Shown here: piece after piece, positions 7 through 44,769 of the stretch
Layout of the letters: every line of letters starts with the position of its first letter
How positions within the stretch are numbered: position 1 is the stretch's first letter
Assembly (NCBI GenBank): GCA_029263125.1
Contig: JAJCYD010000014.1
Coordinates: 124,001-188,000, forward strand
Source: Solirubrobacteraceae bacterium
Lineage (GTDB): Bacteria > Actinomycetota > Thermoleophilia > Solirubrobacterales > Solirubrobacteraceae
Direction: 5' to 3'
DNA length: 64,000 nucleotides
Program-made: the position numbers and the translations under genes
Notes under the pieces: generated by a model
What the model saw: only the letters and a program-made list of their open reading frames with translations
What the model was told of the DNA's origin: nothing
Databases searched by the model: none

Positions 7-912
7 TCAGCCCGAGGTGAAGTCCAGGATCAGCTCGGCGGTCTCCAGCGGGACGTCGAGCTGGGGCGCGTGGCCAACGTCGTCGAGCTCCACCCAGTCC
101 GCCGTCGGCAGCCATTCGCCGCGGTAGCGCACGGCGCTCGCCGGTAGTGGCAGCAGCTCGTCGTTCATGCCCCAGACGATCCGCACCGGGCACCTCACCC
201 GCTCGGCATCCAGCTCATAGCCCTCGCGCAGCGCACAGTCGATCATCGCGGGCACATCGCAGGCCGCGACACCGCGCACCTGGTGAGCGAGCAGCTCCGC
301 CGGGATGTGCTCGAACGCGACGGTCTGCGGCCGGGTGACCCTGCGCCGCCCCTGGACCGTGGACACGAACGCGTCCGCCGAGAGCGCGGCACCTTGAAGC
401 CCCCGGTGCATCTCGGCTTGACGCTGCGCGATCGCCGGATAGAAGTCGCTCCCCGGATCCCAGCCGCCGGCGGGTGAAAGGGCGACGACCGTTCGGGCGC
501 GGTCGCGCGCGGCGAGCTGCAGGGCGACGAACCCACCGAGAGAGTTGCCGACGAGATGCGCGGTCTGAAAGCCCGCCTCGTCCATCGCGCGCTCCACGGC
601 GTCCACGAGGCCGGCCTGGCCTGTCGCCGCGTCGAACGCCGGGCCGCCGGCATGGCCTGCAAGCGTCAGCGCGAGCACGTCGTGGCGGCACTGTAGCGCC
701 GGAAGGACCAGCTCCCACGTCCTCCAGGTCTCCATGAACCCGTGCAGGCACACCATCGGCGGGCCGCTGCCGCCACGATGAGCGGCGGTGAACCCGGGTC
801 GGGCAAGCGGCGGTCGGGCTATCGGCGTGAGAGCACGACGACCGGGATCTCGCGCTCGGTCTGTGCCTGGTAGTCGTCGTAGCCGGGCCACATCTCGTTC
901 ATGGCCGCCCAC
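7..912 (-). CDS. alpha/beta hydrolase
   Basis: Soluble alpha/beta-hydrolase-fold enzyme; the substrate is unknown. The oxyanion-side motif CLHGF lies near residue 55, the nucleophile elbow GNSLGG near residue 123, an acid follows the strand VRIVWG, and the catalytic histidine is in DDVGHAP near the C terminus. The conserved stretch AHRGGSGPP before the first strand shows that the start must lie upstream of the ATG at 756. No ATG, GTG or TTG is available between that stretch and the end of the neighbouring gene, so the start must be ATG 912 or GTG 891. Either one overlaps the 3' end of the deazaflavin reductase gene by 70-95 bases, so the two are probably cotranscribed. Family assignment is firm; the start is not. 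Confidence 0.85.
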
Positions 913-1238
913 AGGCGCGCGCGCTCCTCACCCTCGGCGACGGTCGCCACGACGGGGATCTCGTCGGCCTGCACCTGGATCGTGATCTCGGGGTTGGCCC
1001 GCAGGTTCAGAAACCACGCGGGGTGATCCGCAGCCCCGCCCTTGGACGCGACGATCACCCAGCGTTCACCGTCGACACCGTGGATGAGGGGCGTCGTGCG
1101 CGGCTCACCGGACTTGCGCCCCGTCGTCGTCAGCAGCAGCACCGTGGCGCCGCGCCAGCGATAGCCCCGTGCGCCCGCCGTCTCGCGGTAGACGCGGACA
1201 TGCTCGGCTCCGAAGAGGTCGTCATCCGCTGCGGCCAC
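819..1238 (-). CDS. Ddn-type nitroreductase/deazaflavin-dependent oxidoreductase
   Basis: 139-residue member of the nitroreductase / F420-dependent split-barrel family (DUF385, Ddn-like). The core [18 protein letters not shown] followed by [11 protein letters not shown] and [12 protein letters not shown] is diagnostic. Such proteins bind the deazaflavin F420 and reduce or quench a variety of small molecules; the true substrate cannot be told. Translation starts at GTG 1238 with no Shine-Dalgarno, 7 bases after a TAGACT -10 element, so the mRNA is probably leaderless. It is divergent from selO and overlaps the downstream alpha/beta hydrolase gene. Confidence 0.88.
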
Positions 1239-1245
1239 GGTCGCG

Positions 1246-1251
1246 AGTCTA
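1246..1251 (-). promoter_or_regulatory. -10 element (TAGACT) of the reductase gene, leaderless type
   Basis: On the minus strand TAGACT lies 7 bases before the GTG at 1238. There is no purine-rich ribosome binding site, so transcription probably begins at or next to the start codon. Confidence 0.6.
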
Positions 1252-1294
1252 ACCGCCGCGACGCGACGGTCTCAAGCAGGCCGACGGCGCTCGT

Positions 1295-1300
1295 TAGCCT
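1295..1300 (+). promoter_or_regulatory. -10 element (TAGCCT) of selO
   Basis: TAGCCT ends 7 bases before the ATG at 1308. A GGAG sits between, but only 3 bases from the ATG, too close for an ordinary ribosome binding site. It pairs back-to-back with the minus-strand element at 1246-1251. Confidence 0.55.
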
Positions 1301-1307
1301 GGAGTGC

Positions 1308-2789
1308 ATGAGCATTGCCGCCAAGCCGCTGTTCGCCTTCGACAACTCCTTCGTCCGCGACCTGGAGGGCCTCTACGAGCCCTGGCAGGCGGCAGACGTG
1401 CCCGAACCCCGGCTGCTGGCGCTCAACGAGGATCTGACCGCCGAGCTGGGCGTCGATCCCGAGGCGCTTCGGACCCCCGAGGGTGTCGCAATGCTGGCGG
1501 GCAACGCCGCCCCCGACGGCGCCGCGACCGTGGCGCAGGCGTACTCCGGCCACCAGTTCGGTCATCTGTCACCGCGCCTGGGAGACGGGCGTGCGCTGCT
1601 GCTCGGCGAGGTGCACGACATCCACGGGCGCCGCCGCGACCTGCATCTGAAGGGCTCCGGCCGCACGCCCTTCGCGCGCGGCGGGGACGGCAAGGCGGCC
1701 GTCGGGCCGATGCTGCGCGAGTACGTGATCGGCGAGGCGATGCACGCGCTCGGGATCCCCACCACGCGGGCGCTGGCCGTCGTGGGCACCGGGGAGGACG
1801 TCATGCGCGAGACCCCGCTGCCCGGCGCCGTCCTCACCCGCGTGGCGGCGAGCCACATTCGCGTCGGCACCTTCCAGTACGCGGCGGCCACCGCCGACAT
1901 CGAGCTCGTTCGGCGCCTGGCCGATCACGCGATCGCGCGCCATCATCCCGAAGCGGCCGGCGCCGACGACCCCTATCTCGCCTTCCTGCAGGCCGTCGTC
2001 GACGCGCAGGCGACGCTGCTGGCCCGCTGGATGCTCGTCGGCTTCATCCACGGCGTCATGAATACCGACAACATGACGATCTCCGGCGAGACGATCGACT
2101 ACGGCCCCTGCGCGTTCATGGACGCCTTCGACCCCGACACGGTGTTCAGCTCGATCGATCACGGTGGCCGCTACGCGTACGCCAACCAGCCGGACATCGC
2201 GCTGTGGAACCTTGCCCGGCTCGCCGAGACCCTGCTGCCGCTGCTCGGCGCGCAGGAGGATCTCGCGTTGGAGGCCGCCACGGGCGTGCTGCGGTCCTTC
2301 CCCGACCGCTACCGGGCGACCTGGGACCGCGGGATGCAGGCCAAGCTCGGACTCGCCGACGGTGATCCGGGTGACGGGGAGCTGATCGGCGACCTGCTGG
2401 CGCTCATGCACGCCCAGCACACGGACTTCACCTCGGTGTTTCGTGCGCTGTCGCCCGCCGCGCATGGCGACGCGACAGGCGTCCGGGCCCTCTTTGACGA
2501 GCCCGCGGCCTTCGACGCGTGGGCTGAGCGCTGGCGGCAGCGGCTGTCATCTCAAGCCGCCGAGCCGGCCGAGATCGCACGGGCGATGGACCGAGTCAAC
2601 CCGGTCTACATCGCGCGAAACCACCTCGTCGAGGACGCTCTGGGCGCGGCGACCGCCGGCGACCTGGGCCCGGTGGAGGGGCTGCTCGACGTGCTCGCCA
2701 GCCCGTTTGACCAGCGGCTCGGCCTGGAGGCATACGCGGCTGCGGCGCCGCCGAGCTTCGGCGCCTACCAGACGTTCTGCGGAACCTGA
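1308..2789 (+). CDS. selO: SelO family protein adenylyltransferase
   Basis: 493-residue SelO/YdiU pseudokinase, which transfers AMP from ATP to hydroxyl side chains of target proteins (family knowledge). Visible motifs are the glycine-rich nucleotide loop [17 protein letters not shown], the region [21 protein letters not shown], and the metal-binding pair NTDN and DYGP in the catalytic core. Length fits the family. The ATG at 1308 was chosen because the protein begins there with the family-typical FDNSFVRDL segment; upstream in-frame codons run into the divergent promoter region. No C-terminal selenocysteine or Cys-x-x-Cys tail is seen; the protein ends TFCGT. Confidence 0.93.
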
Positions 2790-2814: not shown

Positions 2815-3798
2815 CTACGGGCCACGCGTGAACGACGGGCGTCCGATCAGCTCGACGGTGCAGGAGCTCGGGGCCGCAAGCGAGCCGCGACAGATCAGCG
2901 GGCCTTCCTCCAAGGCGCGCTCGCGCCCGCCCTCAAGCGCCGACGAGGTGGCCAGCCCGAGTGCGCGACCCGCCCACGCCGAGGAGATCTCACGGGCGGT
3001 CCCCTGCGCGTAGACCAGCTTCGAACCGCGCAGGATGTACAGGACGACACGGTTTCCGCGGCCCGAGCCCGCGTTCGTGCGCACCCACATGAAGCCCGCC
3101 GGCGAGGACACGTAGCTGGGGCGCGTGACGTCGGCGTAGTTCGCGCCGCCCGACGTCGCCGTGTAGACGATGTGGTCGCGGCCGGTGCGCCGGTTGCGGA
3201 TGTGCACGCGCTTGCTGCCGTTGTCGCTGATCGGCCCGGGGCGCGTGTCGACGTAGGCGACGTGCTTGGGGCTGAGCTCGGCCATGACGATCGTGCTGCG
3301 CGCGACCAGCAGGTGGGTCCCGCGTGAGCGGCGGCTGGTGCGCCCCTCGCGGAGCTGGTCGCGCCCGCGCACGCGGCGGACGAAGGCGACGTCGCCGCGA
3401 TGGATCGTCGGATCGCGCTCGGCGTAGGGCTTCGATGTCAGCCCGGTGAGCCGCCGCTCGCGGCCGGATGCGACGTGGGTCATGTATACGTCGCCGTCGC
3501 GCGTGTAGACGGCGTAGGTCGAGCCGAGGCTGTTGGTGCCGAGGTCGACGTCGAACGGGCGCGTGCGCGAGCGGACGCCGACGGGCTCGGCCGCGCCGCC
3601 GTCGACGGACTTCACCAACGCGTAGCGGCCGCTGCGGGCATCCAGCCGCGACCAGACGACGGTCCCCTCCCAAGCAGCGACGCGGGTCGGCGCGAGCTCG
3701 CGGGCAAGCTGGGTCGGCGCGGCCTGCGCGCTGGTCGCGCACGAGAGCAGGACGGCGGTGGCGATCGCGATCTGAAGTGTGGGGCGCATGCTGGTCAT
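2815..3798 (-). CDS. secreted beta-propeller-like protein of unknown function
   Basis: About 327 residues with a clear signal peptide: MTSMRP, then a hydrophobic core (IAIATAVLLSCATS) and an AQA-type cleavage site. The mature part is rich in short beta strands with recurring S/T-x-A-V-Y/W and D-G-D-V patterns (AWEGTVVWSRLD, STYAVYTRDGDVYMTH, PKHVAYVDTR), as in TolB/WD40-like propellers, but repeat boundaries are not clean. The role is unknown. It is convergent with selO, with only 25 bases between them. The start was placed at the ATG giving the complete signal peptide; the ATG 9 bases further in is also possible. Confidence 0.7.
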   Translation of the reverse strand: MTSMRPTLQIAIATAVLLSCATSAQAAPTQLARELAPTRVAAWEGTVVWSRLDARSGRYALVKSVDGGAAEPVGVRSRTRPFDVDLGTNSLGSTYAVYTRDGDVYMTHVASGRERRLTGLTSKPYAERDPTIHRGDVAFVRRVRGRDQLREGRTSRRSRGTHLLVARSTIVMAELSPKHVAYVDTRPGPISDNGSKRVHIRNRRTGRDHIVYTATSGGANYADVTRPSYVSSPAGFMWVRTNAGSGRGNRVVLYILRGSKLVYAQGTAREISSAWAGRALGLATSSALEGGRERALEEGPLICRGSLAAPSSCTVELIGRPSFTRGP

Positions 3799-42053: not shown

Positions 42054-43001
42054 GTGTCTCCGAGCTTCTGCCGCCACAATCGCTTCGTCGAGAACTGCCC
42101 GATCTGCCGGCAGCCCGCTCCCTCGCCAACCGCCCGCCGTCCTGCGGGCTCGCCGCGCGCGCCACGGTCCTCCTCGCCGTCCTCACGCGGTTCTCGCGGC
42201 GCGATGCGCGTGCGCAAGCTGACGCAGTCCGCCGACGACGGATACCGCAACGAGCTGGTCGCCGGCCTGAAGGCCTCGCAGGACGCGCGTCGCCTTGCCG
42301 CCGAGCTCGCGTTCGCGACGGCGCGGCTTGCCGAGCTGGCCGCCGATCCGCCCGGGATCTACGCGCAGATCGCCTCCGAGCCCGATCCCGAGGAGGCGCT
42401 GTGGCTGGCGTTTGTGACGACCTACGTGTCGCCGAGCGCCGGCGATGACCCCTTCGCGGCGATCGCCGCCGCACGCGTGCCGTGGGCCTCGGGAGAGCTG
42501 CCCGACCTCGACGTCGCGATGGGGATCCGCACATCGCACGACCAGTCCGACGGCGTCCGCACGGTGCTCGCCTATCGCGCATGGGCGCAGCGCGCCGGCG
42601 GCCAGCAGGCCGCGTTCGCCGGCGAGGACGCCTGGACGCCGCAGCGGCGCTTTGATCGGCTCTTCGAACGTCTCGCGGTCGGACGCTTCGGGCGACCCGG
42701 GCGCTACGAGCTGCTCGCGGTGCTCGGTCGGTTGGGCGTCGTCGACGTGCGACCGTCCTCGCTGCAGTTCGCCGACGACGCCACGACGGTCGCGGCCAAG
42801 CGGGTCTTCGGCATCGGCGACAGGATGCTGCTGGAACGACGGGCGCGCGATCTCGCCGATGCCGCCGACGTGCCGGTCGACGCGCTGGATCTCGCCCTGT
42901 TCAACTGGGCGGCGCCGGAGCTCGGCCGCACGACGATGGGCTCGCGCGCCGCGGCGGCGGAGGACGACGTCGCGGCGATCGAGGGCGTTCTGAGCGTCTG
43001 A
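42054..43001 (+). CDS. unknown protein with N-terminal C-x-H-x6-C-x2-C motif
   Basis: 315 residues. The N terminus (CRHNRFVENCPIC) is a compact zinc-binding pattern, followed by a 30-residue Ser/Pro/Arg-rich linker and a mostly helical domain from about residue 55. The last part (VFGIGDRMLLERRARDLADAADVPVDALDLALFNWA) has a G-I-G turn between helices, reminiscent of helix-hairpin-helix DNA glycosylase-like folds. That is only a guess. I do not recognise the family. Confidence 0.65.
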   Translation: MSPSFCRHNRFVENCPICRQPAPSPTARRPAGSPRAPRSSSPSSRGSRGAMRVRKLTQSADDGYRNELVAGLKASQDARRLAAELAFATARLAELAADPPGIYAQIASEPDPEEALWLAFVTTYVSPSAGDDPFAAIAAARVPWASGELPDLDVAMGIRTSHDQSDGVRTVLAYRAWAQRAGGQQAAFAGEDAWTPQRRFDRLFERLAVGRFGRPGRYELLAVLGRLGVVDVRPSSLQFADDATTVAAKRVFGIGDRMLLERRARDLADAADVPVDALDLALFNWAAPELGRTTMGSRAAAAEDDVAAIEGVLSV

Positions 43002-43476: not shown

Positions 43477-44769
43477 GTGGACGATCGCAGGGGCGGCGAG
43501 CAGCGCAGTGACGCGGCGGAGGACCTGATCCTGCGTACGATCGGTGCGCATGCGGACTCGCTGCTGCGGACGGCGCGGCGGCATTCGCTGTGTGCCGACG
43601 ATGCCCAGGACGCCTATCAGCGGGCGGTCGAGATCTTCATGGGGCATGCCCACCGGCTGGACGATGCTCGCGCGCCGGGCTGGTTGCACGTCGTCGTCAA
43701 GCGTGAGGCGCAGGCGATTCGCCGTGGGCGCCAGAAGTCCGTGTCCTCGTCGGACGTCGACCTGGACGGCCATGTGGCGCGCGGGCTGCAGTCGCCGGAG
43801 GAGCGGCTGCTGAGCTTTGACGTGATGAGCCGTTCGGCGGAGGCGCTCAAGCGCCTGAAGCCGCAGGAGCTGCGCGCGCTGTGGCTGCGAGCTGAGGGGC
43901 ACAGCTACAGCGAGATCGGGGCGATCACGGGCTGGAGCTACACGAAGGTCAATCGCTGCCTGACAGAGGGGCGGCGGGGCTTCATCCAGCGCTACAAGGG
44001 CATCGAGTCTGGTGCCGAATGCGATCGCTGGCAGCCGCTGCTGTCGGCGATCGTCGACGGTGAGGCCACCTCCGAGCAGCTGCACGACCTGCGCCCGCAC
44101 CTGCGCAACTGCCCCGCGTGCCGGGCGACGCTCAAGGCGCTGCGCGACAGCTCCACGCCGCTCGCGGCGCTGCTGCCCGCTGGGCTGCTCGCGCAGGACG
44201 CCGCGTCATCCGAGCAGCTGCCGCATCTGCTGCTGCGCCTGTATGAAAGTGTCGCCGGTGGTCTGCACGAGCGCGCGGTGCACTCGTTCACCAAGACCCA
44301 GGCGCTCGTCGAGGCATCGGCCGCGGGCAAGGTGGCCGCGGTCGCCGCATCGGCCGCGGCGGTGGCCGGCGGGGGCTACGCATCGGTCGAGCGGGCGATC
44401 GAGCGACCTGCCACAGCACAGCCGGCACGTTCGGCCGCCACGAACACCGCCACCGCCGGTCCGCAGCCGGCGCGCACGACGCCCGCCGCCGCGACGACCA
44501 CGCGAGGTGCTCCCACGACGACCGCCACGGCGCCCAGCCGCAACGTGTTTGCCCCCAAGCAGGCGTCGCGCAGCTCCGAGCCGGCGCCGGAGTTTCGCAG
44601 CCGCAGCACCTCCACACCCCCTGTCCGAGCTCAGTTCGCATCGGCCGCGTCCTCGGCGTCTACGTCCTCACCGCGGAAGGCGCCCGTGGCCGCGTCGTCG
44701 CGGCCCAAGCCGGCACCCGAGTTCCACGGTGCGACGGGCGTCGCGGCGCCCGAGTTCGGCGGTCCGTAG
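43477..44769 (+). CDS. ECF-type sigma factor fused to anti-sigma-like zinc finger and long tail
   Basis: 430 residues. Sigma region 2 spans about 15-85 and region 4 about 118-170 (ELRALWLRAEGHSYSEIGAITG helix-turn-helix). A zinc-finger anti-sigma motif of the H-x3-C-x2-C type follows (H208, C212, C215 in HLRNCPAC). Then come helices, an Ala-rich hydrophobic stretch near residues 284-306 that may cross the membrane, and a 120-residue Thr/Ala/Pro/Ser-rich tail with two PAPEF motifs ending PEFGGP. ECF families with fused zinc finger and membrane extension are known; this looks like one. It starts at GTG. Confidence 0.82.
   Translation: MDDRRGGEQRSDAAEDLILRTIGAHADSLLRTARRHSLCADDAQDAYQRAVEIFMGHAHRLDDARAPGWLHVVVKREAQAIRRGRQKSVSSSDVDLDGHVARGLQSPEERLLSFDVMSRSAEALKRLKPQELRALWLRAEGHSYSEIGAITGWSYTKVNRCLTEGRRGFIQRYKGIESGAECDRWQPLLSAIVDGEATSEQLHDLRPHLRNCPACRATLKALRDSSTPLAALLPAGLLAQDAASSEQLPHLLLRLYESVAGGLHERAVHSFTKTQALVEASAAGKVAAVAASAAAVAGGGYASVERAIERPATAQPARSAATNTATAGPQPARTTPAAATTTRGAPTTTATAPSRNVFAPKQASRSSEPAPEFRSRSTSTPPVRAQFASAASSASTSSPRKAPVAASSRPKPAPEFHGATGVAAPEFGGP

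What the first reader, a model, noticed from the sequence alone, without database searches (positions are those of the whole stretch)
43477..44769. Sigma factor fused to zinc-finger anti-sigma motif, possible membrane helix and Pro/Thr tail
One chain holds sigma regions 2 and 4, an H-x3-C-x2-C anti-sigma motif, an Ala-rich hydrophobic stretch and a long low-complexity tail ending in repeated PAPEF/PEF motifs. If the hydrophobic stretch crosses the membrane, the sigma factor is tethered and would need release by proteolysis or a conformational signal sensed by the tail.
Basis: partly seen in the sequence, partly recalled or inferred. Interest (0 to 1): 0.6.

Follow-up and report, generated by a model that had tools for sequence, protein, structure and literature searches.

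The report
Membrane-tethered sigma factor with shared tail tag
This soil-bacterium gene encodes a transcription switch that appears to be locked to the cell membrane by its own built-in inhibitor, and its tail ends in a short conserved peptide that a second small membrane protein of the same bacteria also carries, which suggests that both tails are recognised by the same unknown partner.

Summary
Window 43477-44769 (+) encodes 430 aa: ECF-type sigma regions 2 and 4, a zinc anti-sigma domain (C182, H208, C212, C215 invariant in 30 homologues), an Ala/Val-rich uncharged helix (aa 286-304), and a Pro/Ala/Thr/Ser tail with three (P)APEF motifs, the last ending the chain (APEFGGP*). The architecture resembles known fused sigma/anti-sigma proteins (ECF48/52/53, IutY). 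The gene is near-core in Solirubrobacterales (53 of 63 good genomes). The new result is the tail. Its linker is unalignable, but the last residues carry E[F/M/L][G/A/S] in 66 of 84 homologues (1.4 expected). A second, unrelated, small single-span membrane protein, encoded opposite rpsF-ssb in the same genomes, ends in the same motif in every complete copy. In the window's 3.75 Mb genome the APEFG-coding pattern occurs only in these two proteins' C-termini. Where the small protein is missing at that locus, the sigma motif is usually lost or altered. I infer a tethered, self-inhibited sigma whose C-terminal tag is read outside the membrane by a receptor, perhaps a site-1 protease, shared with the small protein. 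Reader unknown; topology inferred. Separately, serine-integrase elements interrupt this gene at one codon run (TKVN) in five genomes.

The parts
43477..44769 (+). Whole gene: sigma factor fused to zinc anti-sigma domain, hydrophobic helix and tagged tail (430 aa, GTG start, stop included)
43543..43731 (+). Sigma region 2 (aa 23-85)
   Evidence: Pfam PF04542 E 7.5e-6; AlphaFold2 helices 6-36, 40-60, 66-88 at high confidence
43840..43974 (+). Sigma region 4 (aa 122-166) with the recognition helix GWSYTKVNRCLTEGR
   Evidence: Pfam PF08281 E 1.5e-5; conserved columns
43942..43953 (+). TKVN codons: the site where mobile elements interrupt orthologues in other genomes; intact here
44020..44124 (+). 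Zinc anti-sigma (zf-HC2) domain, aa 182-216, ligands C182, H208, C212, C215
   Evidence: Pfam PF13490 E 2.3e-8; ligands invariant in 30 homologues
44332..44388 (+). Uncharged Ala/Val-rich helix (aa 286-304), probable membrane span
   Evidence: same position in homologues; helix 284-307 in the model, low confidence
44389..44766 (+). Low-complexity Ala/Pro/Thr/Ser tail (aa 305-430)
44581..44595 (+). Internal tag copy PAPEF
44710..44724 (+). Internal tag copy PAPEF
44746..44766 (+). C-terminal tag APEFGGP; outside this gene the APEFG-coding pattern occurs in this genome only in the small rpsF-divergent protein

Best explanation
The gene encodes a membrane-tethered ECF-type sigma factor that carries its own zinc anti-sigma domain directly after region 4. 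That domain is expected to hold sigma regions 2 and 4 in an inactive state; the helix at aa 286-304 anchors the protein with its N-terminus in the cytoplasm; and the tail lies outside the membrane as a flexible spacer that presents a C-terminal peptide tag, E-F-[G/A]-[P/F], to an extracytoplasmic reader. The same tag ends a second, unrelated single-span membrane protein encoded divergently from rpsF-ssb-rpsR-rplI. The likeliest scheme is that one receptor, possibly a site-1 protease with a peptide-binding domain as in AlgW/MucE/MucA, binds both tails: the small protein modulates or competes for it, and cleavage of the sigma tail leads to intramembrane proteolysis and release of active sigma. 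Shown: the domain architecture, near-core conservation, invariant zinc ligands, the conserved tag, its sharing with the small protein, and co-occurrence. Inferred: topology, self-inhibition, a common reader, proteolytic release.
For: Domains; invariant zinc ligands; AlphaFold2 gives confident sigma2, sigma4 and ZAS helices, and the nearest solved chains include ECF sigmas bound to anti-sigmas: SigK with the cytosolic domain of its anti-sigma (TMt 0.54), SigW-RsiW, sigmaE-RseA. Conservation: 53 of 63 good order genomes, mostly single copy, and family f5 of another order. Tag: 66 of 84 sigma tails against 1.4 expected in shuffles; background ORFs 5 of about 761 after removing three sigma-type proteins. 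Own genome: APEFG pattern three times, twice in the small protein and once in the sigma C-terminus. Small protein: every complete copy ends in E/Q-F within about 14 residues, with a clear span (17-mer mean 2.19) and N-flank charge +2.4 against about 0 after it, that is N-in/C-out. Paired losses: sigma tag against small protein, Fisher p = 2.5e-4 in 42 genomes; five sigma-less genomes also lack the small protein at the rpsF locus. In f5, EFGP-stop occurs in the sigma in eight genomes, with one other true hit among them.
Against: The window's hydrophobic stretch scores 1.52, below the usual 1.6, and its modelled helix is low-confidence. The window tail is net basic (+9), and many family tails hold Lys/Arg-rich stretches, which is unusual for an exported segment. 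No reader has been identified. The paired test is not corrected for phylogeny (two or three independent losses), and absence was judged only at the rpsF locus. Two f4 genomes keep the small protein while the sigma copy examined lacks the tag, and a few genomes without a detected orthologous sigma (G045, G053, G075) keep the small protein, two of them with a more divergent tagged zinc-finger sigma. Variant forms of the tag do not track each other closely between the two proteins.
Confidence: 0.48

Rival explanations
1. The tag is a homotypic or scaffold-binding motif: the sigma and the small protein co-assemble, or both dock on an envelope structure, so that the sigma is sequestered at a place and released by changes in that assembly, without proteolysis.
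For: The tag is shared by unrelated single-span proteins and by further single-span proteins beside type IV secretion genes in two families.
Against: Nothing yet separates it from the protease model; known fused sigma/anti-sigma proteins are thought to be released by proteolysis (PMC8999054).
Confidence: 0.25
2. The hydrophobic helix is not a membrane span: the protein is soluble, the helix packs with the anti-sigma part, and the tag is a cytoplasmic recognition peptide (for example a degron or an adaptor site).
For: Borderline hydrophobicity (1.52) and low model confidence; basic tails in many homologues.
Against: The uncharged 16-36 residue segment sits at the same place in the homologues with a positive N-flank; the co-tagged small protein has a clear membrane span with its tail predicted outside.
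Confidence: 0.18
3. The tail is neutral low-complexity drift in a high-GC genome and the PEF repeats are incidental.
For: The linker between helix and tag cannot be aligned and is Ala/Pro/Ser/Gly-rich.
Against: 66 of 84 C-termini against 1.4 expected; 139 of 177 Phe in the tails follow E/D/Q; EFGP-stop in the sigma of eight f5 genomes with almost no other hit; own-genome uniqueness of APEFG.
Confidence: 0.02

Closest known systems
ECF52 sigma factors (SCO4117 of Streptomyces coelicolor; PMC5826349)
   Same: One chain with ECF sigma, zinc finger, membrane region and proline-rich C-terminal extension; found in Actinobacteria.
   Different: ECF52 ends in a carbohydrate-binding domain after the proline-rich region; here there is no such domain, only a 126-residue tail with a short C-terminal tag that a second membrane protein shares.
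ECF48 and ECF53 groups (described in PMC8999054)
   Same: C-terminal fusions with a zinc-finger domain and one or two transmembrane helices in Actinobacteria.
   Different: Group models were not available here; no shared C-terminal tag is described in the passages read.
IutY of Pseudomonas putida (ECF243; PMC8999054)
   Same: Sigma and membrane-bound anti-sigma in one chain; released by Prc and RseP cleavage.
   Different: A TonB-dependent cell-surface signalling system for a siderophore; another anti-sigma type and another envelope.
MucE/AlgW/MucA-AlgU of Pseudomonas (PMC8545111)
   Same: An envelope protein's C-terminal peptide is read by the PDZ domain of a protease that starts release of an ECF sigma; a working analogy for the small tagged protein.
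   Different: There the anti-sigma is a separate protein and the sigma does not carry the signal; no AlgW-like reader has been identified here.

Membership tests
ECF-type sigma-70 factors with fused zinc anti-sigma domain | Sigma regions 2 and 4 without region 3 | tested here: met
   Pfam matches (region 4 slightly under the curated cut-off) and the predicted structure with ECF sigmas as nearest folds
ECF-type sigma-70 factors with fused zinc anti-sigma domain | H-x3-C-x2-C zinc anti-sigma motif with upstream Cys | tested here: met
   zf-HC2 E 2.3e-8; C182, H208, C212, C215 invariant in 30 homologues
ECF-type sigma-70 factors with fused zinc anti-sigma domain | Transmembrane helix after the anti-sigma domain | tested here: inconclusive
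   Conserved uncharged helix, mean hydrophobicity 1.52 here and 1.67 in the family, positive N-flank; no experiment
ECF52 | Carbohydrate-binding domain after the proline-rich region | tested here: not met
   No Pfam match beyond sigma, zf-HC2 and weak helix-turn-helix or DUF models; the tail is 126 aa of low complexity
ECF52 / ECF48 / ECF53 | Placement in the group by its sigma-domain model | not testable with these tools
   Group HMMs are not among the libraries; the classification paper (NAR gkaa1229) is not held
IutY-type (ECF243) | Processing by Prc and RseP on a siderophore signal | not testable with these tools
   Needs an experiment

The most novel reading that the evidence does not exclude
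E-F-[G/A]-[P/F] is an undescribed C-terminal recognition tag of single-span envelope proteins in Thermoleophilia, read by one dedicated extracytoplasmic receptor; a near-core membrane-tethered sigma factor and the small rpsF-divergent protein are its two constant clients, and type IV secretion loci encode further tagged proteins, including a sigma factor, that may exploit the same reader.
Probability: 0.38. Interest if true: 0.8.

Novelty: new variant of a known kind. Interest (0 to 1): 0.62.

Why it matters
Fused, membrane-tethered sigma factors have been predicted from bioinformatics, but their signals are mostly unknown. Here the tail reduces to a short tag that is specific in the genome and shared with one small membrane protein, so the search for the signal receiver becomes a pull-down with a short peptide. 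The gene is near-core in an order for which I found no ECF literature, so it probably controls something general about the envelope. The repeated interruption of the same gene by different serine-integrase elements is a second testable point.

Tried and rejected
Close relatives by peptide patterns from the window protein alone in genome contigs: none; the alignment query worked. Plasmid collection: no match. Conserved neighbourhood as a clue to function: only shared locally (glutamate synthase, FMO, TetR) and not across genera. Promoter comparison for autoregulation: a dyad TTGCG-N18-GGGG in 19 of 100 sigma upstreams exceeds shuffles but probably reflects close relatives; the generic ECF motif GGAAC-CGT is not enriched. 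Homologues ending at aa 166-169 (G042, G048, G054, G057, G086, G098, G101) were first taken for interrupted genes and then judged to be natural short forms without the zinc domain. Tight variant-by-variant matching of the tag between the sigma and the small protein was looked for and not seen. Two genome-search runs failed on the server.

Full report
WHAT IS THERE. The ORF at 43477-44769 (+) is open for 430 aa. Pfam finds sigma region 2 (E 7.5e-6, aa 23-85), sigma region 4 (E 1.5e-5, aa 122-166, marginally under its curated cut-off) and a zf-HC2 domain (E 2.3e-8, aa 182-216). NCBIfam gives the ECF superfamily model below cut-off and weak anti-sigma matches to the same segment. After the zinc domain come about 70 helical residues, an uncharged Ala/Val-rich stretch (aa 286-304) and a 126-residue tail of Ala, Pro, Thr and Ser with PAPEF twice and APEFGGP at the very end.

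CONSERVATION. In the window's family 32 of 41 genomes, and in the order 53 of 63 good genomes, hold a relative, mostly as a single copy. Named relatives are Solirubrobacter, Conexibacter, Paraconexibacter, Patulibacter, Svornostia and Thermoleophilaceae MAGs. In the class, the gene is also in family f5, outside the order, and essentially absent from f6-f9 (two weak matches in f7). In an alignment of 30 homologues the four zinc ligands C182, H208, C212 and C215 are invariant. AlphaFold2 (mean pLDDT 80) gives confident sigma2, sigma4 and ZAS helices, with region 4 running directly into the ZAS domain; the helix 284-307 is low-confidence. Nearest solved chains are ECF sigmas, among them complexes with anti-sigma domains.

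MEMBRANE HELIX. The uncharged segment has a mean length of 21 in 71 homologues, mean 19-mer hydrophobicity 1.67 (window 1.52) and net charge +1.1 before and +0.1 after it; 14 further homologues escaped the pattern but hold a similar hydrophobic stretch. This favours a span with N-in/C-out but does not prove it.

THE TAIL TAG. The linker is unalignable, yet the C-terminus is not free: EFGP, EFAP, EFGFE, QFGFE, and in one lineage EMGLE/ELGLE. E[FML][GAS] lies in the last 16 residues of 66 of 84 full-length homologues; shuffling the last 110 residues gives a mean of 1.4 and a maximum of 6 in 1000 rounds. Of 177 Phe in these tails 139 follow E, D or Q. Among 764 background ORFs, eight have [EQ]F[GAST] in the last 12 residues, and three of those are sigma-type proteins. 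In family f5 the codons for EFGP-stop are found in the sigma of eight genomes, with no match to the reversed control pattern; the only two other hits are a TGG read-through and a third carrier described below.

A SECOND TAGGED PROTEIN. An EFGFE pattern search over 61 genomes gave about 50 hits, several times the reversed control. The C-terminal ones fell in the sigma and in a second protein: a short N-terminus with R-[IV]-R-W-G-N, one membrane span, a Pro/Arg-rich tail and the tag. It lies divergent to rpsF-ssb-rpsR-rplI. The window's genome has it (contig C8, about 69,770-70,290, ending APEFGSGRVTAPEFGSR), and the APEFG-coding pattern occurs three times in that genome: twice in this protein and once at the sigma's C-terminus. 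I examined the rpsF locus of about 70 genomes. Every copy with a complete C-terminus ends in E/Q-F within about 14 residues. Its span is clear (17-mer mean 2.19) and its flanks predict C-out, which indirectly places the sigma tail outside too.

PAIRED LOSSES. Over 42 genomes with a complete sigma C-terminus and a readable rpsF locus, sigma tag against small protein gives 31/1 and 4/6 (Fisher p = 2.5e-4). One of the four, G019, is a frame problem: its in-frame tail ends EFGFE. The small protein is missing in genus g44, where the sigma tails lost the tag, in g14, where the motif changed to E[LM]GLE or was lost, and in five genomes that lack the sigma. Three genomes without a detected orthologue keep the small protein; two of them have a more divergent zinc-finger sigma that ends in EFGP. 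The p-value ignores phylogeny; there are two or three independent events. Absence was judged at the rpsF locus only.

MECHANISM. The scheme in Best explanation follows from this anatomy. The analogy for a small envelope protein whose C-terminal peptide is read by a protease that frees an ECF sigma is MucE/AlgW (PMC8545111, abstract). The analogy for a single-chain sigma/anti-sigma freed by proteolysis is IutY, and ECF48/52/53 are predicted to work so (PMC8999054; SCO4117, PMC5826349). No reader protein was found.

INTERRUPTED ORTHOLOGUES. In G008 (8,970 bp) and G010 (18,492 bp) both halves of the gene lie on one contig with an element between them; in G018 (same genus as the window), G099 and G081 the N-half runs into an element. 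In all five the break is at the TKVN codons (aa 156-159; shared core about ACnAAGGTnAA), and a large serine recombinase lies at the junction. The three recombinases compared directly are 26-38% identical to one another, so the site has been used repeatedly. In G008 and G010 the core codons are in the same phase in both halves. G002 and G013 have breaks at a second place (VVK codons, aa 73-74). The window copy is intact. This resembles skin/sigK and other gene-intervening elements (PMC5025042, PMC5595907), but whether excision is regulated is unknown.

VERDICT. The architecture is a new variant of a known kind. The shared, genome-specific C-terminal tag is, as far as I could find, undescribed.

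Noticed in passing
L034 2598-11662; L035 654-19240; L038 7858-9366; L071 478-2409; L076 353-2425: Mobile elements with large serine recombinases interrupt orthologues of this sigma gene at the same TKVN codons in five genomes; the recombinases are diverse.
   Followed up: partly
L192 about 3270-3790 (+) (G000:C8 about 69,770-70,290): Small single-span membrane protein divergent from rpsF-ssb-rpsR-rplI with the same C-terminal tag as the sigma.
   Followed up: yes
L306 1504-2250 (-) in G054; L348 about 700-1510 (+) in G125: Further single-span proteins with acidic N-parts ending REFGP/LEFGP, both beside type IV secretion genes.
   Followed up: partly
L349 13329-14801 (-): A sigma factor without zinc finger, with a hydrophobic helix and a tail ending EFGQP, inside a type IV secretion locus.
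   Followed up: partly
L037 1030-1215 and 10686-10940; L041 6151-6330: A second break position in orthologues, at the VVK codons (aa 73-74), in G002 and at contig ends of G013.
   Followed up: no
window 42054-43001 (+): Upstream neighbour with a Cys/His start (CRHNRFVENCPIC) matches aGPT-Pplase3 (E 1.9e-13) and ADDT (9.2e-8), DNA thymine-modification families (my knowledge: mostly of phages); relatives lie upstream of the sigma in four other loci.
   Followed up: no
L039 4980-14336: In G036, of the window's genus, the sigma N-half (to aa 141) is followed by genes for E1/E2/JAB-like and patatin-like proteins, a possible defence cluster; no C-half was found.
   Followed up: no
L002 (G000:C11) and L003 (G000:C33): Two more sigma proteins of the window's genome with a hydrophobic helix and a Pro-rich tail; neither carries the tag.
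   Followed up: no
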